Shown here: positions 26,933 through 39,276 of the stretch, piece after piece | How the letters are laid out: each line of letters begins with the position of its first letter | Numbering within the stretch: the stretch's first letter is position 1 | Source of the DNA: Catellatospora tritici | GTDB lineage: Bacteria > Actinomycetota > Actinomycetes > Mycobacteriales > Micromonosporaceae | Assembly: GCF_019083965.1 (NCBI RefSeq) | Contig: NZ_JAHRCY010000017.1 | Coordinates: 62,001 to 126,000 of the forward strand | Direction: 5' to 3' | DNA length: 64,000 nt | Notes under the pieces: model-generated | The model's input: the letters and a program-made list of their open reading frames with translations, nothing else | The model's database searches: none | What the model was told of the DNA's origin: nothing | Position numbers and translations under genes: made by a program

Positions 26933-27016
26933 GTCCGGGTGGCGGAATGGCAGACGCGCTAGCTTGAGGTGCTAGTGCCCGTATAGGGCGTGGGGGTTCA
27001 AGTCCCCCCTCGGACA
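26933..27016 (+). tRNA. tRNA-Leu (anticodon GAG)
   Basis: A full cloverleaf of 84 nt: acceptor GTCCGGG pairs with CTCGGAC (one G-T), D-arm region GGCGGAATGGCAGACGC, anticodon stem CTAGC/GCTAG with loop TTGAGGT (GAG at 26966-26968), a long variable arm typical of class II tRNA-Leu, and T-arm GGGGG-TTCAAGT-CCCCC. Discriminator A at 27016; CCA is not encoded. It is the insertion target of the integrase beside it. Confidence 0.95.
26972..27016. other. Putative attachment-site region (element/chromosome junction)
   Basis: The 3' half of tRNA-Leu is also the last 45 nt of the integrase gene on the other strand. Integrases that insert at a tRNA commonly lie right beside their att site, so the crossover point is probably here or within a few nt downstream. 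I did not find a second copy of the tRNA 3' end in the window, so the other element end is probably beyond the right edge. Confidence 0.5.
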
Positions 27017-28651
27017 CACACTAGTACATGATCCATCTGGGCTGGCCTCCGCTTTGATCAAGCGGGGGCCTGGTTCGTATGTAAGCCGAAGTCCGAGTTG
27101 TCGATACAGTTCCGCCTTGTCGGCCGGATCGGCGACCTTGAGGATGGCCGCGATGCCTGACATGGCCTCGACAAGCGTTCCGATCTCACCCGGGGTCATG
27201 GTTCGGCGGCCGGTAAGCGCCCGCAGCTCCGACTCGGCCGCGGCCTTCTCGGCTTGTGCTTGGGCGATCCACTGCTGGACCAGTACTGGGTCGGTGCCGA
27301 CTTCGAGCGCTGCGCGGTACCGGTCGAGCTTGGTATTGCAGCCTGCGATCTTGGTCCGGGCGGCGTCGATACGGTGTCTGTCGCGGTCGTCGTGCTGGGA
27401 ATCGGCCATGGCTTGCAGGGTGTCGCGAAGGTTGGCGGGGGAGAACGCCCTGGCCACCCATGGGTCAATCAGTTCGACGATCTTGTCTTCGCGCAGGTAG
27501 ACACTGCGTGGATGGGCCAGTCGCTTGGAGTCGGCGTATTCGGCGGCGTAGGTGCACCGGTAGTGCCTGCGGCCGTTGTTGAAGCTGCCGACCATGCGCC
27601 TACTGCACAGGCCGCAGAAGATCAGTCCTGACAAGGTGTAGCTGTGCTTGCTCCGGCGGGGTTTGTGCTCGACGTCGGGTCGGCGGGCGCCTGCGGCGAT
27701 GAGCGTCTGTACCTGTCGGAAGGTGTCATCGTCGATGATGGCTTCATGCGCCGGATCGTTGGAGTAGATCCAATCCTGCTGTGGGCTCCAGCGCATCTTG
27801 GTGTCGTGGCCCAGAGCCACGTCCTCGACGTCGATGAGGACTTCGGTCTTGCGCTGCTTGTTCCACACCTGGCGGCCGGTGTAGCGCGGGTTGGTGAGAA
27901 TCACGCGCACCGCCGACTTGCCCCATGCGTTGACGTGTCGGTGCGGGTTGCGTTGTGGGTCGCTGGCGGACGGGGACAGGATGCCGTCACGGGTCAGGCC
28001 CTCAGCGATGGCGTATAGGCCGGTGCCGCGCACGAACTCCCGGTAAATGCGCTGCACCACCGGCGCGGTTGAGGGGTCCGGCTCGAGCCTGTGCAGGCGC
28101 CTGCCGTCCGACGCCTTCGCTGGGTTGGGGTGAGGGCCGGCGTCGATGAGGCGGTAACCGTATGGAGGGCGACCGCCGAGGAACCGGCCCTCCATGGCTG
28201 CCTGCGCCGCCATGGCGGACCGGACTCGGATCTTGATGCGGTTGCGCTCGCCCTTGCTCATTCCGCCGTACAGCGCCATGACCAGGTCGTGTGCGTCGCT
28301 TCCTGGGTCGACTGCACCGCCGACCTCCGGGATCCACAGCTGCACGCCGTAGTGCTCGAAGAGTGGAAATGTCAGGCCGAACTGGTTGCCGTAGAAAGCG
28401 CGCTGTGGCTCGCCGATCACCACGCCCTCGAACCCGCGGCGCGGCTCTCGCAGCGCCGTGAGGAGTTCGGCGGCACGCGGCCGCCGCTTCCACGGCAGCG
28501 ACCTGGATGTTCCGATGTCGAAGTACTCGGCGACGACTTGGTGACCGGCTGGTTCGATCAGGCTGCGGGCCCGGGTCAGCTGCCAGTTCCGTGAGGCTTC
28601 TGGATCTTGGTTGTCCTCGGTCGAGACGCGACCATAGAACGCGAATCTCAT
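26972..28651 (-). CDS. Large serine integrase (site-specific recombinase)
   Basis: 559 residues. The N-terminal resolvase domain has the catalytic Ser10 (YGRVSTEDNQD) and the Arg-containing motif GMSKGERNRIKIRVRSAM. A recombinase domain follows (GGRPPYGYRL, GKSAVRVILTNPRYTGRQVW), then a zinc-ribbon (GLIFCGLCSRRMVGSF and HYRCTYAAEY) and a coiled-coil (about 425-495). The last ~15 residues are read antisense through the tRNA-Leu gene, so the natural C-terminus depends on the integrated junction. The ATG start overlaps the stop of the small upstream gene by 4 nt. It catalyses integration of the element. Confidence 0.95.
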   Translation of the reverse strand: MRFAFYGRVSTEDNQDPEASRNWQLTRARSLIEPAGHQVVAEYFDIGTSRSLPWKRRPRAAELLTALREPRRGFEGVVIGEPQRAFYGNQFGLTFPLFEHYGVQLWIPEVGGAVDPGSDAHDLVMALYGGMSKGERNRIKIRVRSAMAAQAAMEGRFLGGRPPYGYRLIDAGPHPNPAKASDGRRLHRLEPDPSTAPVVQRIYREFVRGTGLYAIAEGLTRDGILSPSASDPQRNPHRHVNAWGKSAVRVILTNPRYTGRQVWNKQRKTEVLIDVEDVALGHDTKMRWSPQQDWIYSNDPAHEAIIDDDTFRQVQTLIAAGARRPDVEHKPRRSKHSYTLSGLIFCGLCSRRMVGSFNNGRRHYRCTYAAEYADSKRLAHPRSVYLREDKIVELIDPWVARAFSPANLRDTLQAMADSQHDDRDRHRIDAARTKIAGCNTKLDRYRAALEVGTDPVLVQQWIAQAQAEKAAAESELRALTGRRTMTPGEIGTLVEAMSGIAAILKVADPADKAELYRQLGLRLTYEPGPRLIKAEASPDGSCTSVCPRGDLNPHALYGH

Positions 28652-28929: not shown

Positions 28930-29361
28930 GTGTCCCCAAGGGATCGCTGACGCCGCGATGCGGCGTCGTAGCTCGGTAGGCCATGGGGTCCTCCTTCGTG
29001 TCGTGCAGTGCTGAAAAGGGTGATCAACTGCGGTTGGCTGGGTGCGGAAGGGGCACTGGCAGTCGCGGGCAAGAGATCGGCATCTCTTCGATTTGTCGGA
29101 TGTAGTGTGTGGCCCGGGTACGTTTAGCCATGATCGCTACCCCGCATGATCAACTAGTGGGTGGGGACCGTCGATCGTCGGTCCGTCCAGGGAATTGGTC
29201 AAGCCGTACTTGCGGCGGCTGAGCTGGTAAGAGGCAATGAGGAAGGCCCGGTCGACTGCATGTCGATCGGGCCTGCGCGTCCTCGAGAAGAGGCCGGTTG
29301 TGGCGTACCGTGCTGTACCCGCCGCCGTTCGAGTTCCCCCGTATCGGAGATACCGGGCGAA
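28930..29361. other. Intergenic stretch without a supported gene, includes a hairpin
   Basis: No open frame here has a ribosome site plus a recognisable product. A hairpin with arms GGCCCGGTCGAC and GTCGATCGGGCC (about 29244-29273, one mismatch, loop TGCAT) could be a terminator. AT-richer than the host genes. Confidence 0.5.
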
Positions 29362-29427
29362 CTCGAACCGGTGGACCCGATGGGGCGCTCGAACCGGTGG
29401 ACCCGATGGGGCTCGAACCGGTGGACC
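29362..29427. repeat. Tandem repeat, 24-26 bp unit, 2.7 copies
   Basis: CTCGAACCGGTGGACC starts at 29362, 29388 and 29412; the first two units continue identically with CGATGGGG. The third copy runs into repeat R1, which begins with the same GTGGACC. Confidence 0.85.
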
Positions 29428-29519
29428 ATACGTCACAGAATCCGAACCGTGTTCCCGCTGTTCAGGGGCCGGTCGTGACCGTCCCGCCTGTTCGACCGCG
29501 CAAGATCCAGCCGTTGTGA
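29421..29519 (+). repeat. Dispersed repeat R1 (cassette border)
   Basis: First of three related roughly 90-bp sequences. It is the diverged copy: it shares with R2 and R3 GTGGACC, CCGAACCG and TCAGGGGCC, then CGTG, in the same order and spacing. Read in frame all three contain NPNR, then QGP, then VRxR, and end at a stop, so a short conserved peptide is possible. R1 lies about 135 nt past the 3' end of the NB-ARC/TPR gene. A related CAAGATCC motif occurs at 29501 and 29552 here and at 32025 beyond the other side of that gene. Confidence 0.7.
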
Positions 29520-29652: not shown

Positions 29653-31893
29653 TCAGACCTGCTTGTAGAGGGCGGTGGCTTCGGCGACCCGGCCCGCCTC
29701 CTGGTAGGCGCTGGCGAGGTTGTTGCGGGAGATCAGGGTGTGGGGGTGGTCGTCGCCGAGTACCCGCCGACGGTCGGCCAGGACCTGCTCGTAGAGGGCG
29801 ATGGCCTCGGCGACCCGGCCCGCCTCCTGGTAGGCGTAGGCGAGGTTGTTGCGGGAGATCAGGGTGTCGGGGTGGTCGTCGCCGAGCACCCGCCGGGAAT
29901 CGGCCAGGACCTGCTCGAAGAGGGCGATGGCCTCGGCGACCCGGCCCGCCGCCCGGTAGGCGCTGGCGAGGTCGTTGCGGGAGATCAGGGTGTCGGGGTG
30001 GTCGTCGCCGAGCACCCGCCGACGGTCGGCCAGGACCTGCTCGTAGAGGGCGATGGCCTCGGCGACCCGGCCCGCCGCCCGGTAGGCGTAGGCGAGGTCG
30101 TTGCGGGAGTTCAGGGTGTGGGGGTGGTCGTCGCCGAGCACCCGCCGACGGTCGGCCAGGACCTGCTCGTAGAGGGCGATGGCCTCGGCGACCAGGCCCG
30201 CCGCCCGGTAGGCGTAGGCGAGGTTGTTGCGAGAGTTCAGGGTGTGGGGGTGGTCGTCGCCGAGCACCCGCCGGGAATCGGCCAGGACCTGCTCGTAGAG
30301 GGCGATGGCTTCGGTGACCCGGCCCGCCTCCTGGTAGGCGACGGCGAGGTTGCTGCGGGAGATCAGGGTGTCGGGGTGGTCGTCGCCGAGCACCCCCCGG
30401 CGGTCGGCAAGGTTGTCGGACAGTATCGACACGGCGCCGGTCAGATCGCCGGCAGCCTCAAGCGCTCGGCCCATCCAGTCGGCCTGGACCAGCAGCAGCG
30501 CGGGAGGATCGCCAGCCGAGTTCTCGCGAACCGCCAACACTTGCCGGGTGAGTTCATCCACCTCGGCCCGGCGCAGCGCTACCTGTGCCAGGGGCAGACC
30601 GTCGGTGAGGACGTCGAGCATCTGCGACGCCGTATCGACGGCTTCGGCCAGGCTGGGATGCGCGCCGTCGTGAGAGGCGAGGTGTCGCACCACCCGCGCG
30701 GTCAGCCGGTGAACCACGACCAGCACCCCATCGCCCGCTACGCCAGCGGATCCGCTGAGCGTGACCAGCGACCAGCCCGCCAACACATCCAGCGCGGCCC
30801 GCACCCCGCCGGACAACCCCAACCCCGCCTCGCCCCGCACCAGCAGCCGACGACTCACACCATCGGCCGACAACACCGACAGCACCCCGAGCAGCCGTAG
30901 CGCGTCACCGGAGGCGTCGGCCGCGTCGACACCGGCCATGCTCAGTGCGGTCGCCTTCAACACCCCCGGATGAGACGCCCCCGACTCCTGCCGCAACGTC
31001 TCATCCAAACGCTCACCGGCCAACAACCGCAGATACCCCGCGTAGGTCTCCCCGTTACGCGCCACGTAAGCACCTGCCTGTGCCAGACCCAGCGGCAACC
31101 ACCCCAACTCCCGACCTAACGCCACCGCGTCCGGGCCATCTGCCAGGCCGGTCGTTTCGCGTAGGAACGCCCGCCCTTCCGCCTCGGTGAACACCCCTAC
31201 TTCCACCGCGGCGACTCCGTCCATCCGCAGGAACTCCCGCCGATTCGACGTGATCACAACCTTCACCCCGCCACGCGTGGGCAGCCACTCCCGCAACACC
31301 TGCGGATCGTCGACGTTGTCGAACACCACCAACCGCCGCGCCCGGCCGCCATCGCTGAGCCAGCGCACTGCGAGCCCGGCCAGCACCTCCGGCGCATCGT
31401 CCGCGCCACCCAAGCCACGCGCCCGCGCCACCTGCGCCAACCCCGCGACCGGCCCCGACTCGGCGTTCAACCACGCGACCAGGTCGAACCCGGCCGCATC
31501 ACACTCACGCGCGAACGCCGCCGCCAGCTGCGTCTTACCCGCACCACGCTGCCCCGGCAACGCCACCAACGCCACCCGACCACGACCACCCACCGCCCGA
31601 CGCAGCGCCTTCATCTCACGCGATCGCGCCTGAAAGTGCGCCGCCCCCAGCGGAACCTGCCCCACCACCCGCGACGACAATCCGACCACCGCCGGACCGC
31701 CCGCACCATCGGCAGAGCGCACCTTGCTGACGAGATCGGGAAGGAAGGCCATGACCAGAGCCGCAACCGCCGTGGACACGACCACCACCGGCGGCTTGTC
31801 ATCGGCGATCAGCGACCAGACAACGGTGGCGGTACCCACGCAGCACGCCACCGCGATCAACCCGTACTTGAACCACCGACGACCGGTCATCAC
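29653..31893 (-). CDS. Membrane-anchored NB-ARC STAND ATPase with TPR repeats
   Basis: 746 residues. Two hydrophobic segments (about 10-30 and 36-54) precede an NB-ARC ATPase: P-loop GQRGAGKT (114-121), Walker B LVVFDNVDD (188-196), and the GLPL-like motif LGWLPLGLAQAG. A winged-helix-like region leads to six 42-residue kinesin-light-chain-type TPR units (from about 488; each VLGDDHPDTLxSRNNLAxAY-like) that are nearly identical at DNA level. The protein ends abruptly in helix A of a seventh unit (ALYKQV). STAND proteins sense a ligand with the repeats and signal through the ATPase; many are anti-phage. No separate effector domain is seen. Flanked by R1 and R2. Confidence 0.88.
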   Translation of the reverse strand: MMTGRRWFKYGLIAVACCVGTATVVWSLIADDKPPVVVVSTAVAALVMAFLPDLVSKVRSADGAGGPAVVGLSSRVVGQVPLGAAHFQARSREMKALRRAVGGRGRVALVALPGQRGAGKTQLAAAFARECDAAGFDLVAWLNAESGPVAGLAQVARARGLGGADDAPEVLAGLAVRWLSDGGRARRLVVFDNVDDPQVLREWLPTRGGVKVVITSNRREFLRMDGVAAVEVGVFTEAEGRAFLRETTGLADGPDAVALGRELGWLPLGLAQAGAYVARNGETYAGYLRLLAGERLDETLRQESGASHPGVLKATALSMAGVDAADASGDALRLLGVLSVLSADGVSRRLLVRGEAGLGLSGGVRAALDVLAGWSLVTLSGSAGVAGDGVLVVVHRLTARVVRHLASHDGAHPSLAEAVDTASQMLDVLTDGLPLAQVALRRAEVDELTRQVLAVRENSAGDPPALLLVQADWMGRALEAAGDLTGAVSILSDNLADRRGVLGDDHPDTLISRSNLAVAYQEAGRVTEAIALYEQVLADSRRVLGDDHPHTLNSRNNLAYAYRAAGLVAEAIALYEQVLADRRRVLGDDHPHTLNSRNDLAYAYRAAGRVAEAIALYEQVLADRRRVLGDDHPDTLISRNDLASAYRAAGRVAEAIALFEQVLADSRRVLGDDHPDTLISRNNLAYAYQEAGRVAEAIALYEQVLADRRRVLGDDHPHTLISRNNLASAYQEAGRVAEATALYKQV

Positions 31894-32295
31894 CGCAATC
31901 TATCCACGGCCATCAACACGCACTACCGTCCGAACACCCCCCGCCAGGCCAACTAAGTGGGCGCTGGCGTTGTGAGTACGGCCCGCCCACCGCTGCGTAG
32001 GCACAGAACAACCCCGACCGACCGCAAGATCCGGGCAATGTACGGATTACACAGCAGGCGAACTGGAATTCCCGCAGGTAGCAGACGCATTGCCGACTGG
32101 TCTTGAAAACCGCCGCCAGGCCGCGCCCGGCAGGCGGGTAGACAGACACCGGCGAGAGGGCGCTGAGGACGGCGGTTCGCGCCGGGCCAATCGGACAGTT
32201 TGACCAGCGGAAGCCAGAACGGATCCATGGAACGGGTGAAGGCCCAGCTCAACGAGCCAGGCCTTCATGGCGGGCAAGATGCCCGAATTGTATGG
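31894..32295. other. Intergenic stretch between divergent STAND genes
   Basis: No supported gene. It holds CGCAAGATCCGGGCAAT (32023-32039, nearly repeated at 29551) and two hairpins: GAAGGCC/GGCCTTC (about 32238-32265) and CGGGCA-AGA-TGCCCG (32271-32285). Promoters of the two STAND genes should lie between 31894 and 32544. Confidence 0.5.
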
Positions 32296-32385
32296 GTGGA
32301 CCCGATGTGGCACAACCCGAACCGCATTCACACTGCTCAGGGGCCTGCCGTGGTTGTTTCGGCGGTCCGGCGGCGCGTCGCATAG
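32296..32385 (+). repeat. Dispersed repeat R2 (cassette border)
   Basis: 90 bp. The first 58 or so bases are identical to R3, the rest diverge mainly at positions that keep an AVRRR reading, and both end in TAG at the same offset. It sits between the NB-ARC/TPR gene and the Sel1/STAND gene. Confidence 0.8.
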
Positions 32386-32544: not shown

Positions 32545-35500
32545 GTGCGGGGTGAACATGGTGGGGTACGACTTCGCGGCCGGTGGCTTGCGGGAGTTGC
32601 TACCTCTGCGGTGGTCGGGGCGGCGATCGTTGCGTCCCTGAGCGTGGCGAGCTTGCCTCGTCCGATTGCGCTACTGGTTGCGGGTCTCGGTGCCGTGGTC
32701 GCGTTGCTGGCGCCACCGATCGTTGGCCTCTGGCTGGACGATGTCCGGGCACGCCGCGCTGAGGCGGACCGGAAGCGTTCAGTCCTCAAGGAGCTATCTG
32801 GCACGCCTGACGGTGTGTGGCGCACCGTCGCCGAGGTTGCCGCCGAGGCGGCAGCAAAGACGAGCGCCGCCGTTCGCCTGGGGATCCATCAGGCCATCCC
32901 CCTGGACGAGACTGCATATCCCCGTCTACCACGGGGCCTGCCTACCTACATTGGACGCGATGCCGACACCCAGCTCCACGGCGCGGTAAGTGCATGCATT
33001 GACAGAGGCGGCTTCGTCCTGCTCGTGGGCGAGTCGGCGGTCGGCAAGACTCGATCTGCGCTTGAAGCGCTGCGGGAGTTGGTGCCGGCATGGCGGTTCT
33101 TCCGACCGTCAAGTCCGCAGGCGATTCGCAAGCTCGTTGACGCCGGTGTAGACCGTGGCAAGCTCATCGTCTGGCTTGATGACATCCGGCGGTACTTGAT
33201 CGGCGAGGACGCGATAGCCCCTGAAACACTGCGGGACCTGCTCCTTGGCACGAGTGGCACCATCGTCATAGGCGCAATCTGGCCCGCACATCTCGCGCGG
33301 TTGACTGCCCCGGCCGTCGATCTCGGCGGCGACTCGTTCGCAACGGCTCGTGACGTACTACGCATGGCCGACTTCACGATCCATGTGCCAGCTTCGTTCA
33401 CGACAGAAGAGGCGAATCGAGCGTCAAGATCGGTCGACCCTCGGCTGATCGAGGCCGCTGCCGTGGCCGCCGACGGCCGCCTTCTTCAGGCGCTCGCATC
33501 GACGCCTGCGCTCGTGGGCAAATGGACGGACGGTATTGACCCGACACTGGGAGCGAGCCCCTCCGGGGTCGCGGTGCTGCAGGCGGCGGTTGCGGGGACA
33601 CTTCTGGAACTCCCGCAGCCGCTATCGCCTTCCTGGATCCAGCAGGTCGCCGCTGCGTGGCTGTCGCCTCAGCAGCGCGCCAGCGCTGCTGTTGACTGGT
33701 TCGATCAGGGCGTCATGTGGGCGTGCGCGCCAGTTCGTGGCGAAGTCGCAGCCATGTACCCGGTGAGCGCAACTGTGGGTCGGATCGACGGCTACCACGT
33801 CGCTGACGCGATCGTGTTCCACGCAGACAGCGTCGAACCCACCCTTGGCTGGCCCAAAGCCGTAGTCGAGGCCATCGCAGCCCAAGGATCTCCCCAGACG
33901 TGCGCCCAGATCGGCGACGCCGCCCACGAATTGGGCTTCGACGACATCGCCGAGCGGCTGTGGCGACAGGGTGGCGATGCCGGCGACACCGAGTCAGCCC
34001 ACAGGCTTGGTTGGCTTTCCCGCGAGCGCGGTGAACTGGCTGAAGCAGAACGATGGTGGACCAAGGCCGCGCAGCAAGGACATCCACACGCCACGATGTT
34101 CCTCTATGACCTGCTCCGTGCCGCGGGCCGTGAACATGAGGCCGCCCAGTGGCTCCAAGTCGGCATCGCACGCGAAGACGCCCCCGCGCTTGCTGACCGA
34201 GCCGCTGAGCTGATGCAGGACGGCAGGGACGACGAAGCCGAAGCCTGGTACCGGCGGGCCGCCATGGCTGGCGATCGGGACTCCATGTACATCTTTGCGC
34301 ACCTGCAAAAGGACAAGAATCCGGCTGAAGCCGAGCGTTGGTTCGGTGAGGCAGCCCGGCTCGGCGAAACCGACGCCATGATCGCCCTGGCCGACATCCT
34401 CGAGCACACCGGCCGTCTGGAGGAAGCGATCAAAACGCTCCGTGACGCTGTTCGGCAGGATGAGCCGCATGCGATGGTCCGACTTAGCTTCCTACTTCGT
34501 CGAACCGGCGACCCGCAGGGCGAAAGCGAAGCGCTGATACGCAAAGCCTCAGACCTCGGCGATTCGTGGGCTATGACCCTCTGGGCAGGCCGGATGTATA
34601 CCGAAGGCGAGGAGGAAGCGGCGGAACAACTTCTTCGCCGATCGGCGGATCTGGGCGAGAAATTCGCCCACCTCAAGCTCGGAGAGCTGCTACGAGACCG
34701 AGGTGATCATGCCGCAGCTGCGGTGGAGTATCAGGCCGCGGCCGACTACCTCGATGCCAACGACATCGACAGCCTCACTGACAGTCTGTCTGAGCTTAGC
34801 CGGGCCGATGAGGCACACGCGTGGGTCACCGCATTAGCTGAAGCGGGCAACACCGCCGCGATGATCTACCTGTGGAAGCATCCGCACCAGGCTGGCCCGT
34901 CGCAGTCGTTGGACCATTGGCTTGATCAAGCGCTAAACGTCCTGCGGACACAAGCTCAGGCAGGCGAGGCCATTCCCACGAGGTCACTCATTGATCTTCT
35001 GTCACAGGCAAGAAGGTACGCCGAGGCTATCGACTGGGCACGGACAGCAATCGCCGACGGACATGCCGAGCATGAGTCGGCGCTCGCCAGACTCCTGCAC
35101 ATCACCGGCAACATCCGCGAGGCGATCACGCACTATCAAACTGCTGGTTCCATGAAGTCGCCTGGCACAACTCGCGTTGATGTCTACGACGCAGAAAACG
35201 GCTTCGTCGAAGCGGGCTTGCTTCTTGAGGAACTCGGCCAGCGCACCGACGCCGCCGACTCCTACCGCCGTGCGGCCGACCAGGGCAACGCCTACGCGAT
35301 GTACCTTCTGGCCTTATTGGAGGAGGAGGACCATCGTTCGGTAACGGCCCGAGTTTGGCTTCACCGTGGGCGGGCCGCCACCCGCTGGATCGGCATCGAT
35401 GCACTCGTATATCGGAAGCCGATCTCCACGCCGCCGGGAGTGTGGCTACTCCTGTCGAACCTTCCCAGAGTCTTCAGACAAGCGGCAAACGTCCATCCAG

Positions 35501-35841
35501 CAGTCGCGCTCATGATTCTGCGGTACGCCGCCCTCCGGCGAGACGGCACGGCCATGATCTGCATCGGCCTTCACCACTACCAAAACGGCCGACAGGCACG
35601 GGCGGAAAGGTCGTGGAGAAACGCCATCAGCGAGGGCAACTACTCGGCCGCATTCTTCCTGGCCAAGATCCTGATCGAGCGCGGCAACCTAGCCGAAGCC
35701 CGCGACCTGCTACAGGACGGCGTCGATGCAGAGAACATCCAGGTGCTCCGCTTGGCGTACAGCATCCAGCGTCAGGCCGAGCTCGCCCAACCCGAAGCAA
35801 CCGAAAGGGTGGCGTCGGCGGAGCCGCATGGGTCAATGTAG
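32545..35841 (+). CDS. Large membrane STAND-like ATPase with Sel1/TPR repeats
   Basis: 1098 residues from GTG 32545 (weak ribosome site). Two hydrophobic helices (about 14-33 and 41-63), then a P-loop NTPase: GESAVGKT (162-169) and Walker B LIVWLDD (207-213), with RSALEALREL after the P-loop. From about residue 455 to 820 there are many Sel1/TPR-like units (AERWWTKAAQQGHPHATMFL, AEAWYRRAAMAGDRDSMYIF, AERWFGEAARLGETDAMIAL), with further ones near the C-terminus. GC content is clearly lower than in the host genes. The architecture is of a membrane sensor ATPase, in keeping with a defence or signalling cargo. Cassette bounded by R2 and R3. Confidence 0.8.
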   Translation: MRGEHGGVRLRGRWLAGVATSAVVGAAIVASLSVASLPRPIALLVAGLGAVVALLAPPIVGLWLDDVRARRAEADRKRSVLKELSGTPDGVWRTVAEVAAEAAAKTSAAVRLGIHQAIPLDETAYPRLPRGLPTYIGRDADTQLHGAVSACIDRGGFVLLVGESAVGKTRSALEALRELVPAWRFFRPSSPQAIRKLVDAGVDRGKLIVWLDDIRRYLIGEDAIAPETLRDLLLGTSGTIVIGAIWPAHLARLTAPAVDLGGDSFATARDVLRMADFTIHVPASFTTEEANRASRSVDPRLIEAAAVAADGRLLQALASTPALVGKWTDGIDPTLGASPSGVAVLQAAVAGTLLELPQPLSPSWIQQVAAAWLSPQQRASAAVDWFDQGVMWACAPVRGEVAAMYPVSATVGRIDGYHVADAIVFHADSVEPTLGWPKAVVEAIAAQGSPQTCAQIGDAAHELGFDDIAERLWRQGGDAGDTESAHRLGWLSRERGELAEAERWWTKAAQQGHPHATMFLYDLLRAAGREHEAAQWLQVGIAREDAPALADRAAELMQDGRDDEAEAWYRRAAMAGDRDSMYIFAHLQKDKNPAEAERWFGEAARLGETDAMIALADILEHTGRLEEAIKTLRDAVRQDEPHAMVRLSFLLRRTGDPQGESEALIRKASDLGDSWAMTLWAGRMYTEGEEEAAEQLLRRSADLGEKFAHLKLGELLRDRGDHAAAAVEYQAAADYLDANDIDSLTDSLSELSRADEAHAWVTALAEAGNTAAMIYLWKHPHQAGPSQSLDHWLDQALNVLRTQAQAGEAIPTRSLIDLLSQARRYAEAIDWARTAIADGHAEHESALARLLHITGNIREAITHYQTAGSMKSPGTTRVDVYDAENGFVEAGLLLEELGQRTDAADSYRRAADQGNAYAMYLLALLEEEDHRSVTARVWLHRGRAATRWIGIDALVYRKPISTPPGVWLLLSNLPRVFRQAANVHPAVALMILRYAALRRDGTAMICIGLHHYQNGRQARAERSWRNAISEGNYSAAFFLAKILIERGNLAEARDLLQDGVDAENIQVLRLAYSIQRQAELAQPEATERVASAEPHGSM

Positions 35842-35920: not shown

Positions 35921-36010
35921 GTGGACCCGATGTGGCACAACCCGAACCGCATTCACACTGCTCAGGGGCCTGCCGTGATTGTTGCCGCCGTCCGCAGGCG
36001 GGAGTCGTAG
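35921..36010 (+). repeat. Dispersed repeat R3 (cassette border)
   Basis: 90 bp, nearly identical to R2 for the first ~58 bases, ending in TAG. It follows the Sel1/STAND gene by 80 nt. A hairpin of arms ACCCGCATCGC and GCGATGCGGGT (35848-35881) lies between the gene and R3. A 45-residue frame from ATG 35873 covers R3, but no ribosome site supports it. Confidence 0.8.
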
Positions 36011-36031
36011 ACGATTCACTACATCAAACGT

Positions 36032-36076
36032 ATGGGCCTGCCCGTGTCACCCCGGCACTGGCAGGCCCCATCTTTT
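36032..36076 (+). terminator. Intrinsic terminator
   Basis: Stem ATGGGCCTGCC (36032-36042) with GGCAGGCCCCAT (36060-36071, one bulge), followed by CTTTTG. It ends plus-strand transcription from the STAND cassette before the minus-strand immA. Confidence 0.75.
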
Positions 36077-36162
36077 GTTGTGGACTAACCGGCCTCTGTG
36101 TTGTGTTCAGCCTCGTCCTGCTCGTCTTGCCGGGCGCTGCCCGCCGGATAGTTGAGGCGGCG

Positions 36163-36681
36163 TCAGGAGTAGATACCGAGGTTGATCAACCGGTAGCTCA
36201 TGGCCGAGGTGCTGACGTCGAATATCTGGGCCAGGTAAGAGATGATTCGGTCGCGGCCTGACAGGTCGGAACGTTGAGCGGCCAACCTAACCTCGCGGAC
36301 GACTAGGTCTTGGGGCATCAACAGCGCCGCAGCGAAGGCGTTCGCGTCAATCTCCTTGGGGTCGACGGCAAGGCTAGAGTTCTCATCTCGCCAGTTAACC
36401 TCCCGGTCCACCACGAGAGGGTCCTGTAGGTGGAGAGTCATGTGACCGATCTCGTGGGCGATGGTAAATCGTTGCCGTCTGCGTCCCGAACTCGTGTTAA
36501 TGCCGATGATGCGCTCGCGACCTTCTCGGTACATGAAGCCGGACTGTTCGCCTTCGAAGCGTTGTCGGACGACCTGCGCACCCTCCCAGATAGCGATTTC
36601 CTCGACGGGGACCGGCAACCGGTCGATGCCGTACTTGTTTAGCAACTGGCTGGCAGCGGTTTCAGCTTGGACGCGACTCAT
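36163..36681 (-). CDS. ImmA/IrrE-type metallopeptidase
   Basis: 172 residues. The zinc protease signature is H76-EIG-H80 (IAHEIGHMTLHL) with the downstream acidic segment EIDANAFAAALLMP. In ICEBs1-type elements ImmA cleaves the ImmR repressor when the SOS response or a recipient signal is sensed and so starts excision. Here the repressor gene lies directly upstream and overlaps by 4 nt. It may control the UBL operon, the whole element, or both. Confidence 0.9.
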   Translation of the reverse strand: MSRVQAETAASQLLNKYGIDRLPVPVEEIAIWEGAQVVRQRFEGEQSGFMYREGRERIIGINTSSGRRRQRFTIAHEIGHMTLHLQDPLVVDREVNWRDENSSLAVDPKEIDANAFAAALLMPQDLVVREVRLAAQRSDLSGRDRIISYLAQIFDVSTSAMSYRLINLGIYS

Positions 36682-37025
36682 CGGGCGCTCACCGACCTGC
36701 GGACGGCACCTACGACGTTAAGCACGAAGGCACGGTCATCTGCGGGAAAACTACTAGCTTGCTCGCTGAGCTTCACAAGGTCGACATCCTTCGATTGCCG
36801 TCGCTCCGGCATGAGGTCAGCCGGGTCGAGGTCGAGCGCATCGCAAATCCCATACAGCGCATGCAGTAAAACCTTCTGGCGGCCAGCCTCCAGGTTCGCA
36901 ATCGAAGACCGGGTCAGGCCGATGCGTGCCGCCAACTGACCCTGGGTCACGCCCGCCTTCTCCCGAGCCACGCGGACACGCCGCCCAAAATCCTCGTAGA
37001 ACCCCTTGACATCCCCGCCGTCCAT
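36678..37025 (-). CDS. XRE-family repressor (ImmR-like)
   Basis: 115 residues from ATG 37025. A classic HTH_3 domain fills the N-terminal half (VREKAGVTQGQLAARIGL and TRSSIANLEAGRQKVLL are its two helices, starting VRVAREKAGV). The C-terminal half is short and helical. Partner of the ImmA-like protease. It faces a palindrome-rich control region that also serves the UBL operon in the other direction. Confidence 0.9.
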   Translation of the reverse strand: MDGGDVKGFYEDFGRRVRVAREKAGVTQGQLAARIGLTRSSIANLEAGRQKVLLHALYGICDALDLDPADLMPERRQSKDVDLVKLSEQASSFPADDRAFVLNVVGAVRRSVSAR

Positions 37026-37067
37026 GTGCCGAATTCTGCCGGTCCACGCCCCCGAGTGTCAATCACA

Positions 37068-37191
37068 CAAACATAGGTTTGCATCACAAACGGCCAGCAC
37101 GTCACTCGATCGTGTCGTTGACACGATCGATTCTTCTCAAGTAGCGTCACTCACGCAATCTTCGGATGCCAGGTAAGTTTGTGTAACAAAC
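37068..37191. promoter_or_regulatory. Divergent control region with three palindromes
   Basis: Three inverted repeats lie between the repressor gene and the UBL gene: CAAAC-ATAG-GTTTG (37068-37081), TCGATCGTGTC-GTT-GACACGATCGA (37106-37130) and GTTTGT-GTA-ACAAAC (37177-37191). The first and third share the half-site CAAAC/GTTTG. They are probable operators for the XRE protein, allowing it to repress both itself and the UBL operon. Confidence 0.65.
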
Positions 37192-37230
37192 CTCGCCCGC
37201 ATTCGAGCCCGACTGACTTGGGGATACGGC

Positions 37231-37491
37231 ATGAGCCAGGACGATCGCGGGAAGAAGCCCGTAACGATCATCGTGAATACCCGCTCGTACGAGTGGGCCG
37301 AGAAGGAAATCTCCTACGAGGAGGCGTACGACCTTGCGTATCCCAATCAGCCGTTGGGCGACGGCGACACGGCGACGATCGAGTACTCCCGTGGCCCGGA
37401 CGGTCACGGCGGCGGCTCGCTGACGGCCGGCCACAGCGTCCACGTTAAGGATGGCATGGTTTTCGATGTCTACCGCACCTCTCGTTCGTGA
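37231..37491 (+). CDS. Ubiquitin-like (multiubiquitin-type) protein
   Basis: 86 residues from ATG 37231 (GGGG upstream). The fold matches the bacterial multiubiquitin family: KPVTIIVNTRSYEWAEKEIS, then SYEEAYDLAYPNQP, a GDTATIEYSRGP strand and the terminal VHVKDGMVFDV strand. Only one ubiquitin-like domain is present. The C-terminus is DVYRTSRS with no Gly-Gly, unlike conjugated ubiquitins. Its end overlaps the E1-like gene by 26 nt. With the E1-like and DUF6527 proteins it forms a compact three-gene system. Confidence 0.85.
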   Translation: MSQDDRGKKPVTIIVNTRSYEWAEKEISYEEAYDLAYPNQPLGDGDTATIEYSRGPDGHGGGSLTAGHSVHVKDGMVFDVYRTSRS

Positions 37492-38635
37492 CCCGTCCAC
37501 GAGCCGCCTCCTGGATGACGGCTACGACCTCGCCATCCAGGGCGGACATCTGATTGTTCGTAAGGTCCCGTACGTCACTCCCTCCGGCGCGGTGGCGTAC
37601 GGGTGCCTGGCGTACCCGATTACGGTCAGCGGCGACCGGATCAACGATGACAGCGGTGACCACCGGATCTGGTTCGTCGGTGAGCAGCCGTGCGACGAAC
37701 ACGGCAGGGTGCTGCCAGCAGCGTCGGCGCAAGTCCGCCCGATCACCAAAAACCTCGCGGCGGAATACATGCTCTCCAGCAAGCCGCCAAGCGGGTACGC
37801 GGACCAATACGCGAAGGTCACCTCGTACGCGCGAATCCTGTCCCACCCCGCCCAAGCAATCGATCCCGCAGTTACCGCGACCCTCGGAGCGGGATGGGAC
37901 GAGGTTGAGGATGGTCTGCCCTTCGTGTACCGGGACACCGCGTCGTCTCGCGCTGGTCTTGCTGAGCTCAACAGCAAGTTTCAGGGCCACAAGATCGCGA
38001 TTGTCGGCCTCGGCGGCACAGGCAGTTACATCCTCGATCAGGTTGCGAAGACGTGGGTCGATGCCATCGACTTGTTCGACGGCGACTTCCTCGACAACCA
38101 CAACGCCTTCCGTGCACCCGGCGCCGCGGACATCGAGGAGCTGCGTAGCAGACCGAACAAGGCGGAGTACTTCGCGGCGCTCTACTCGCACATGCACATC
38201 GGCATCACCGCCCATCCTGTGGATCTTGACGAGGAGAACTTCTCACTCCTCGATGGGGCTACGTTTGTTTTCCTCGCCGCAGCGGACGCAGAGTCCCTGC
38301 CTGCTGTCATGGCATGGCTGTCCGGACGAGGAGTCCCATTCATCGACGTCGGAATGGGGATCGAGGAAACCGACGGACGCCTCTCGGGTCTGCTGCGTGT
38401 GACGACGCACTTTCCGGAAGACCATGTTCGCCCGCCGCGACCGCCCGCCGTCGCTCGCGGCGGTGTAGACGACTACGACCGGAACATCCAAACGGCTGAT
38501 CTCAACGCGCTCAACGCCATCCTGGCCGTCATCGCCTGGAAGAAGCATCTCGGCTACTACGCCGATCACACCGCCGCCGTCGAGACGCTGTACAAGGTGT
38601 TCACAGGAGAGATTCGAAATGTGGAGGCCGGATGA
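37466..38635 (+). CDS. E1-like ThiF-family protein with N-terminal DUF6791
   Basis: 389 residues from ATG 37466 (ATG 37451 also possible). Residues about 15-100 match DUF6791 (GHLIVRKVPYVTPSG, HRIWFVGEQPCDEHG). The ThiF Rossmann domain begins at 175: nucleotide motif IAIVGLGGTGSYIL (181-186 GLGGTG), the acidic strand DLFDGDF and the Asn/Arg pair NHNAFR that in E1 enzymes contacts ATP. The protein would adenylate the UBL C-terminus. No Cys occurs after residue 76, so no thioester Cys is present in the ThiF domain; only C47 and C76 in DUF6791 remain. Overlaps the next gene by 4 nt. Confidence 0.9.
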   Translation: MSTAPLVRDPSTSRLLDDGYDLAIQGGHLIVRKVPYVTPSGAVAYGCLAYPITVSGDRINDDSGDHRIWFVGEQPCDEHGRVLPAASAQVRPITKNLAAEYMLSSKPPSGYADQYAKVTSYARILSHPAQAIDPAVTATLGAGWDEVEDGLPFVYRDTASSRAGLAELNSKFQGHKIAIVGLGGTGSYILDQVAKTWVDAIDLFDGDFLDNHNAFRAPGAADIEELRSRPNKAEYFAALYSHMHIGITAHPVDLDEENFSLLDGATFVFLAAADAESLPAVMAWLSGRGVPFIDVGMGIEETDGRLSGLLRVTTHFPEDHVRPPRPPAVARGGVDDYDRNIQTADLNALNAILAVIAWKKHLGYYADHTAAVETLYKVFTGEIRNVEAG

Positions 38636-39042
38636 GCAGGGTGTCGAACATGGTCGCGGAGTTCGCCGCGACCTTTCCGACGACTCTCAGACCGGGGGTG
38701 CTCTATGTTTCTGGCGCCTACTCCACCGCAGCTCACCTGTGCTGCTGCGGGTGCGGCCATGAAGTCATAACGCCACTATCGCGAGCGCAGTGGGTGCTTA
38801 CGTTCGACGGTACCGTGTCGCTGCGACCGTCAATTGGAAACTGGACGCTTCCGTGCCGGTCCCACTACTTCATCGATAGTGGGTCCATCCGATGGGCTAG
38901 GCGGTACTCCGAACCAGAGATCGAGGCCAACCGCGAGCAAGACCGTCAACTGCTTGCCGATGCACGAGTCGACAAGCCAGGTGGGTGGCAACCCCTCATC
39001 CAATGCTGCCGATCAGTATGGCGGCGTCTACGGCGGCTATAA
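38632..39042 (+). CDS. DUF6527 family Cys-rich protein
   Basis: 136 residues from ATG 38632 (ATGA overlap). It shows the DUF6527 pattern: a Cys cluster (HLCCCGCGHEV, C37-C41), a conserved WVLTFDG strand, then SIGNWTLPCRSHYFI (C75, H78) and SIRWARRY. The Cys/His set is suited to bind a metal. DUF6527 genes are found with multiubiquitin and ThiF genes in other bacteria; the function is unknown. The C-terminus is basic (WRRLRRL). Confidence 0.8.
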   Translation: MSRVSNMVAEFAATFPTTLRPGVLYVSGAYSTAAHLCCCGCGHEVITPLSRAQWVLTFDGTVSLRPSIGNWTLPCRSHYFIDSGSIRWARRYSEPEIEANREQDRQLLADARVDKPGGWQPLIQCCRSVWRRLRRL

Positions 39043-39048
39043 GCCTCA

Positions 39049-39276
39049 TTGCCGCCGCCGACGGCGTTCGACGTCGTGGTGACCTGGAGCGACGTCATGC
39101 CTGGCCGCGGCAAGCCGGAGCCCGACATCTTTCTGCTCGCAGCTGACAAGCTGAGCGTCGATCCGACAAGGTGTCTCGTGTTTGAGGATGCGGAGGTTGG
39201 CGTCAAGGCGGCCCTAGCGGCGGGCATGGACGTGTTCAACGTTGAGACTCGCGCCTTCAGCAGGCCATTCCGTTAG
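39049..39276 (+). pseudogene. HAD-family phosphatase, C-terminal remnant
   Basis: About 75 residues matching the C-terminal half of beta-phosphoglucomutase-like HAD hydrolases: [29 protein letters not shown] and [19 protein letters not shown]. The N-terminal ~130 residues with the catalytic DxD motif are missing. Only a TTG without ribosome site is available. It lies directly after the UBL operon and marks a recombination scar. Confidence 0.75.

What the first reader, a model, noticed from the sequence alone, without database searches (positions are those of the whole stretch)
36163..39042. UBL-E1-DUF6527 operon under an ImmR/ImmA-type switch on a mobile element
A single-domain multiubiquitin-type protein, a DUF6791-ThiF protein and a DUF6527 protein overlap one another (26 nt and 4 nt) and are divergent from a repressor/metalloprotease pair across three palindromes. 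Seen directly: motifs, overlaps and divergence. Known: ThiF proteins adenylate ubiquitin-like partners; ImmA proteases remove ImmR repressors. Inferred: a protease-switched conjugation system, possibly a defence. There is no E2 or JAB deubiquitinase gene beside it, so the system is minimal.
Basis: partly seen in the sequence, partly recalled or inferred. Interest (0 to 1): 0.85.

Follow-up and report, generated by a model that had tools for sequence, protein, structure and literature searches.

The report
Ubiquitin-like cassette with frozen gene overlap
The window carries a compact, apparently mobile bacterial ubiquitin-like gene set of a kind already described in print, behind a switch expected to respond to DNA damage; what stands out is that its tagging protein and the enzyme expected to activate it share the same 26 DNA letters, an arrangement kept nearly unchanged in most of the distantly related bacteria compared.

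Summary
In detail: five genes, 26-nt and 4-nt overlaps, divergence and palindromes. It belongs to a known kind: the subset of "6e" polyUbl operons whose E1 has "domain X" (inferred to be DUF6791) instead of JAB (Iyer 2006, PMC1779556), sister to the Bub pathway. The regulators match CapH/CapP. A 3,066-bp block with just these genes sits at 96% identity in otherwise unrelated surroundings in Catellatospora bangladeshensis. New here, as far as I could search: the 26-nt UBL/E1 overlap recurs in 91 of 97 loci from about ten phyla, with constraint in both frames; the UBL ends in Ser in 90 of 91; E2 and JAB profiles hit 1 of 97 neighbourhoods, there a separate operon. The window's adenylation domain has no Cys; loop Tyr337 is invariant in 74 of 74. 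The fold of DUF6791 stayed unassigned. Conjugation and defence remain inference. Gong 2025 and Ye 2026, the key Bub papers, were not held.

The parts
36163..36681 (-). CapP-like ImmA/IrrE (M78) metallopeptidase, 172 aa, AHEIGH motif
   Evidence: Pfam Peptidase_M78 8.1e-19; PADLOC capP 2.9e-31
36678..37025 (-). CapH-like XRE repressor, 115 aa
   Evidence: Pfam HTH_31 2.2e-14; PADLOC capH 6.8e-11
37068..37091 (.). two overlapping operator-like palindromes CAAACATAGGTTTG (37068-37081) and GTTTGCATCACAAAC (37077-37091)
   Evidence: sequence; arms kept and spacers changed in C. bangladeshensis
37106..37130 (.). perfect 11-bp inverted repeat TCGATCGTGTC-GTT-GACACGATCGA
   Evidence: second arm has a mismatch in C. 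bangladeshensis
37177..37191 (.). operator-like palindrome GTTTGTGTAACAAAC
37231..37491 (+). single-domain ubiquitin-like protein (Multi_ubiq), 86 aa, ends ...VFDVYRTSRS
   Evidence: Pfam PF14452 5.4e-12; PDB 9cd2 multi-ubiquitin protein 4.4e-6 over residues 10-86
37466..37491 (+). 26-nt overlap of the UBL tail and the E1 start, read in two frames
   Evidence: exactly 26 nt in 91 of 97 loci (recounted in 129); constraint in both frames
37466..38635 (+). DUF6791-ThiF E1-like protein, 389 aa (alternative upstream ATG at 37451)
   Evidence: Pfam DUF6791 1.5e-41, ThiF 1.6e-7; AlphaFold model pLDDT 88.8; Foldseek ranks 1-8 are Citrobacter BubCD chains
38632..39042 (+). DUF6527 predicted metal-binding protein, 136 aa (CCCGCGH...CRSH)
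   Evidence: Pfam PF20137 7.5e-23; motif-bearing ORF next to the E1 in 94 of 97 loci
36004..39069 (.). block shared with C. bangladeshensis at 96.2%, flanks unrelated
35921..36013 (+). left-border repeat, also at 32295-32369 and, weaker, 29419-29478
   Evidence: also in four other genomes of the genus
26972..28651 (-). large serine recombinase, 559 aa, beside tRNA-Leu(gag) 26933-27017; candidate integrase of the region
   Evidence: Pfam Recombinase 4.4e-22, Resolvase 5.2e-9; ARAGORN

Best explanation
A mobile, CapH/CapP-switched bacterial ubiquitin-like cassette of the DUF6791 subset of 6e/polyUbl operons, sister to the Bub pathway. Shown here by sequence: gene content, family membership, the frozen 26-nt overlap, constraint in both frames, the conserved Ser-terminated tail, and the lack of a linked E2 or JAB in the window and in 96 of 97 neighbourhoods. 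Inferred steps: DNA damage or phage DNA gives ssDNA; CapP is activated and cleaves CapH; the GTTTG/CAAAC operators are freed; UBL, E1 and DUF6527 are made together. The UBL gene stops at its mature [KR]-Ser end, so no JAB is needed to trim it. The E1 adenylates that end and passes it on without a Cys-based E2, using the invariant crossover-loop Tyr337 or direct attack by the target's amine; the DUF6527 zinc-finger protein helps to choose the target. The overlap fixes tail length and E1 start together and may couple their translation.
For: Families. E1 domain closest to BubCD: phmmer 0.0041, profile 1.9e-10, Foldseek ranks 1-8, profile-profile 99.1%, E 5.1e-19. ATP-site residues G181, G183, G184, D205, D207, R216 and K232 invariant in 74 of 74. 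Overlap exactly 26 nt in 91 of 97. Double constraint: T at UBL third positions facing E1 codons 5 and 6 in 26 of 46 and 44 of 50 of the loci with GC3>0.75, background 11%. UBL last residue Ser in 90 of 91. E2 and JAB profiles hit 1 of 97 neighbourhoods, both profiles passing leave-one-out controls. Tyr337 in 74 of 74; two solved Bub chains carry Y370F (titles). CapP activated by ssDNA cleaves CapH (PMC13373217, passage).
Against: No biochemical evidence for this subset. Cys76 in DUF6791 is present in 61 of 74, and one adenylation-domain column has Cys in 28 of 74 (not in the window), so a thioester is not excluded for the family. MAFFT and hhalign did not align Tyr337 with BubCD Tyr370; the YxxN/YxxG match is by eye. 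DUF6791 gave no significant fold match and no profile link to Prok-E2_E or JAB. 27 of 97 loci showed no ImmA-like gene, some of them cut short upstream. Six of 97 loci lack the 26-nt overlap, and L044 and L051 have the E1 starting after the UBL stop, so it is not indispensable. Locus L052 has E2-like and JAB-like genes 3.6-5.4 kb away on the other strand.
Confidence: 0.55

Rival explanations
1. Adenylation without conjugation: the E1 works like MccB or a ThiF, modifying the UBL's own C-terminus (AMP or sulfur), and the UBL or its modified end is the signal or toxin.
For: No Cys in the adenylation domain of the window E1 (sequence) and no linked E2; MccB, which modifies the C-terminal residue of a peptide (recalled), is the next structural match after BubCD (rank 9).
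Against: The E1 domain and the DUF6527 partner are shared with the Bub operons, whose protein conjugation is the subject of Ye 2026 (title only, in a reference list).
Confidence: 0.17
2. The XRE/M78 pair is a toxin-antitoxin module that merely stabilises the cassette on mobile DNA, as proposed in 2016.
For: PMC4963859 (passages) reports that 70% of PF14452 proteins lie next to such DUF955 pairs and proposes stabilisation.
Against: Shared divergent promoter region with operator-like palindromes; best PADLOC matches are capP and capH, regulators of adjacent immune operons; in three loci without an ImmA-like hit (L010, L087, L095) a WYL protein stands upstream instead.
Confidence: 0.1
3. The UBL acts non-covalently, for example by self-assembly into filaments, and the E1 controls that.
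For: A homologue with the same ...TDKS end has been solved (9cd2); Gong 2025 is on oligomerisation of bacterial UBLs (title in a reference list; filament detail recalled).
Against: The invariant ATP site of the E1 and the nearly invariant UBL end point to chemistry at the terminus; the window UBL has one domain.
Confidence: 0.08
4. The 26-nt overlap has no role of its own: it is an inherited accident held by the separate needs of the UBL tail and the E1 start.
For: Both frames are independently constrained; six loci manage without it; SD-like 4-mers precede the E1 start in 72 of 91 loci, counted without a control, so the E1 may have its own start signal; I saw no slippery site in the composition table.
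Against: One spacing is shared by 77 of 87 loci here but by 37 of 94 at the next junction of the same operons; the second span is longer, which favours variation.
Confidence: 0.45

Closest known systems
Operon type 6e of Iyer, Burroughs and Aravind 2006 (PMC1779556), the subset whose E1 carries 'domain X' instead of JAB
   Same: 1-3 Ub-like domains, E1 with a non-JAB N-terminal domain, metal-binding protein, sporadic and mobile; an actinobacterial example is listed (section part, passages)
   Different: The paper says that most of the new UBL families have no highly conserved C-terminal residue; in this subset the end is [KRQ]S in 90 of 91. The word 'overlap' does not occur in its text. Identity of domain X with DUF6791 is inferred, not tested.
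Bub (bacterial ubiquitination-like) operons, Citrobacter BubA-BubB-BubCD (Gong 2025, Ye 2026, neither read; PDB 9ea4, 9ea5, 9ea8, 9eae, 9eav)
   Same: Multi_ubiq UBL, homologous E1 domain, DUF6527 (L099), CapH+CapP or CapW next to 219 of 544 operons
   Different: Bub-type loci L099-L102 have Prok-JAB before the E1 and Prok-E2_E as protein or fusion (L099, L100, L102; L101 by eye); the UBL reads TTEG before the E2 or at its end in L100-L102; here DUF6791 replaces JAB, there is no E2, and the tail ends in Ser
Synechocystis pSYSX multiubiquitin cassette next to Slr6057-Slr6056 (PMC4963859)
   Same: UBL, E1, DUF6527, divergent XRE plus M78 pair
   Different: has an E2 gene and a JAB-E1 (L100)
Bil (BilABCD) and CBASS Cap2/Cap3
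   Same: bacterial E1 with a ubiquitin-like or tail substrate, immune setting (recalled)
   Different: use an E2 and a JAB protease (recalled); none linked here

Membership tests
6e polyUbl operon, domain-X subset (Iyer 2006) | UBL with 1-3 Multi_ubiq domains | tested here: met
   PF14452 5.4e-12, one domain
6e polyUbl operon, domain-X subset (Iyer 2006) | E1-like protein with a non-JAB N-terminal domain | tested here: met
   DUF6791-ThiF, no JAB hit
6e polyUbl operon, domain-X subset (Iyer 2006) | metal-binding protein with C-x3-C-x35-38-H-x2-C signature | tested here: inconclusive
   DUF6527 in both classes, but the window reads CCCGC...C-x2-H, order of the last pair reversed (by eye)
6e polyUbl operon, domain-X subset (Iyer 2006) | domain X is DUF6791 | not tested
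   figure not held; Mesorhizobium, which Iyer lists as a domain-X carrier, has records that match the E1 over residues 1-367
Bub pathway (BubA-BubB-BubCD) | E1 homologous to BubD | tested here: met
Bub pathway (BubA-BubB-BubCD) | E2-like BubB (Prok-E2_E) | tested here: not met
   no hit near the window; none in G000 or G445, while 3 of 3 positive records ring
Bub pathway (BubA-BubB-BubCD) | JAB (BubC) fused to the E1 | tested here: not met
   G000 holds one Prok-JAB match, on another contig
CapH/CapP regulator pair | XRE repressor plus M78 peptidase, divergent from the operon | tested here: met
CapH/CapP regulator pair | ssDNA-activated cleavage of the repressor | not testable with these tools
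   needs biochemistry
Anti-phage defence system | protects against phage | not testable with these tools
   no PADLOC match for UBL or DUF6527; E1 only partial E1-E2 matches, best 4.8e-7

The most novel reading that the evidence does not exclude
An E2-less, cysteine-independent ubiquitin-like conjugation system in which an E1 passes a Ser-terminated UBL on through a tyrosine ester or directly from the adenylate, and in which a 26-nt overprinted junction, kept across about ten phyla, sets tail length, E1 start and co-translation as one unit.
Probability: 0.25. Interest if true: 0.8.

Novelty: new member of a known kind. Interest (0 to 1): 0.5.

Why it matters
If the inference holds, this subset asks how little a ubiquitin-like system needs: one UBL, one E1, one zinc protein. 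The frozen overlap, the Ser end and the invariant Tyr give simple single-residue or single-junction tests, and the overlap is a clean natural case of overprinting kept over long times.

Tried and rejected
Idea that DUF6791 is a hidden E2: the order of helix and strands looks E2-like to me, and five of the 50 listed weak PDB hits are E2 enzymes by title (a sixth, 3vx8_B, may be Atg3), but every E-value is 0.08 or more and the best TM of these is 0.37. Profile-profile score against 12 Prok-E2_E sequences was 13.2; 100 column shuffles gave mean 12.3 and maximum 18.0, and the reversed alignment 15.1. Not supported. Idea that DUF6791 is a JAB: not supported either. Viral structure library: nothing significant. 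Programmed frameshift making a UBL-E1 fusion: I saw no conserved slippery site; no dedicated test was made. Phage carriers: no match in the phages collection and none confirmed in viral contigs (close relatives only).

Counts and drops: the XRE profile drifted onto the protease ORFs and was not used; a first ImmA count was mis-seeded and dropped. Of the 70 ImmA-like loci, 19 have the gene on the E1 strand and five are proteins over 1,000 aa (by eye); L070's lies 3 kb away. WYL profile hits were in four loci, but that of L070 is downstream. L001 and L004 (the window's own genome) were dropped from the 97; L005 and L019 are the same place in one genome, and other near-duplicates remain (84 distinct overlap stretches of 91; 87 distinct). 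Ten of 97 loci had no anchor. One search tested seven positions: codons 5 and 6 show the large T excess, codon 2 a T deficit (6 of 85, p 5e-5), the other four weaker or no effect. In one search I looked at clusters of five or more loci by sample sequences only; one search was run as the direct E2/JAB test.
Full report
What is there. The five genes are real and match Pfam above cut-off: on the minus strand an M78 (ImmA/IrrE) peptidase at 36163-36681 and an XRE repressor at 36678-37025; on the plus strand a single Multi_ubiq protein at 37231-37491, a DUF6791-ThiF protein at 37466-38635 (alternative ATG 37451) and a DUF6527 protein at 38632-39042. The 205-bp divergent region holds CAAACN4GTTTG and two GTTTGN5CAAAC palindromes whose arms are kept and spacers changed in C. 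bangladeshensis, and one 11-bp perfect inverted repeat that is imperfect there.

Host and mobility. The nearest relative found is Catellatospora bangladeshensis (E1 97%); its contig has the length of the one in G445, which is of the window's own genus. Within the 13 kb of L019 the two genomes share 36004-39069 at 96.2% and, besides copies of one repeat, nothing else; the repeat is window 35921-36013. In 39 kb of G445 the only further match is 182 bp at window 27006-27187, by the tRNA-Leu, in reversed orientation. In C. bangladeshensis an open frame that I read as a transposase lies between repeat and block. The repeat recurs at 32295 and more weakly at 29419 and rings in 5 of 11 genomes of the genus, the window's own included. 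The E1 family is patchy: 3 of 396 sampled genomes of the phylum and 2 of 200 of the family, the window's own counted in each, and 114 plasmid records. A 559-aa serine recombinase lies beside tRNA-Leu 9 kb to the left.

Relatives. With 13 plasmid loci, three from whole-genome searches (L002, L003, L005) and the window, 97 loci were compared. A UBL frame overlaps the E1 start by exactly 26 nt in 91 of 97: Actinomycetota, Pseudomonadota, Cyanobacteriota, Bacteroidota, Bacillota, Acidobacteriota, Chloroflexota, Planctomycetota, MAGs of the Verrucomicrobia group (Verrucomicrobiales, Kiritimatiellae, Lentisphaerae), and one contig labelled archaeon. Phyla are read from record titles, and MAGs can be mis-binned. 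The other six: L017 and L018 are annotated with 41-nt overlaps, L044 and L051 start the E1 just after the UBL stop, L097 keeps the tail but not the ATG, L040 has no readable UBL at the start that I chose. UBL frames of 130 aa or less, which fits one domain, are 56 of 91 (length only, starts uncertain).

The overlap is read in both frames. UBL tail: mostly T-x-[KRQ]-S-stop, Ser last in 90 of 91. E1 side: at UBL third positions facing the second base of E1 codons 5 and 6, T rises from a 24% background to 57 of 80 and 78 of 87 (p 7e-18 and 2e-36), and in the 50 loci with GC3 above 0.75 from 11% to 26 of 46 and 44 of 50. The loci are related, so these p-values overstate independence. The distance from the UBL stop to an E1 anchor is the same in 77 of 87 loci, from the E1 stop to the DUF6527 motif in 37 of 94, and between two E1 motifs in 24 of 88; the first span is the shortest, so part of the contrast is expected.

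Neighbours. Clustering the 2,968 ORFs of at least 80 aa around the 97 E1 genes gave the UBL (95 loci), DUF6527 (90 loci) and several protease and repressor clusters (41, 19, 13 and 10 loci); clusters of 38, 29 and 11 loci look like shadow frames of these genes, and the rest are in nine loci or fewer. E2 (12 sequences) and JAB (5 sequences) profiles against the same ORFs each hit one, both in L052, in what looks like a separate operon on the other strand 3.6-5.4 kb away; leave-one-out controls worked. Prok-E2_E is absent from G000 and G445, with 3 of 3 positive records ringing, and from six other carrier genomes. G000 has one Prok-JAB match on another contig. Other E2 families were not searched.

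E1 and mechanism. The E1 domain is closest to that of Citrobacter BubCD. ATP-site residues are invariant in 74 of 74. The adenylation domain of the window has no Cys; over the family one column there has Cys in 28 of 74. Tyr337 is invariant in 74 of 74, in a loop modelled at low confidence, which by recall is where E1s carry their catalytic Cys. Two solved Bub chains carry Y370F (titles). By eye YxxN at 337 matches YxxG/N at 370, a Tyr kept in the five Bub-type E1s compared; the alignments themselves do not pair them. Against a Cys-free route, Cys76 of DUF6791 occurs in 61 of 74. The DUF6791 model is confident (pLDDT 91.2) yet matches nothing significantly.

Known and new. Iyer 2006 (one part of the text and passages) described 6e operons with one to three Ub-like domains, an E1 with JAB or another N-terminal domain, and a Zn-finger protein. 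PMC4963859 (passages) reports that 70% of PF14452 proteins lie next to such DUF955 pairs. PMC13373217 (passages) says that 219 of 544 Bub operons sit by CapW or CapH+CapP and that Bub has not been shown to defend. Searches for DUF6527 and DUF6791 found no paper; a search with overlap terms listed four papers, none holding those terms. The library is open-licence only and did not hold Gong 2025 or Ye 2026, so prior description cannot be excluded.

Verdict. A well-read locus of a known kind. The conserved overlap, the Ser end and the invariant Tyr are what deserve follow-up.

Noticed in passing
29326-29478, 32295-32369, 35921-36013: A 60-94 bp repeat sits between successive large genes (two TPR proteins and the cassette) and recurs in other genomes of the genus, like a border of exchanged modules.
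   Followed up: partly
39049-39276: HAD-hydrolase C-terminal fragment directly after the cassette; it matches only the last part of the Pfam profile, so the cassette may have landed in or replaced part of that gene.
   Followed up: no
L019 3225-4544: Transposase-like open frame between the border repeat and the cassette in C. bangladeshensis; beyond it a frame that looks like a DUF262-type protein (both names by my reading).
   Followed up: no
L052, 3.6-5.4 kb beyond the E1 start, other strand: Contig labelled archaeon: next to the DUF6791-type operon lie ORFs matching the E2 (5.6e-7) and JAB (1.5e-4) profiles, as if a Bub-type operon stood beside it.
   Followed up: no
L009, L056, L058, L063, L078, L083: A protein of over 1,000 aa (annotated UvrD helicase in L009) lies upstream of the UBL on the same strand; in five of these six an HExxH protease-like motif was scored.
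   Followed up: no
29653-31893 and 32545-35841: Two large TPR proteins next to the cassette, with NTPase-domain hits below Pfam's cut-offs (AAA_16 in both, nSTAND3 in the second); possibly other defence genes.
   Followed up: no
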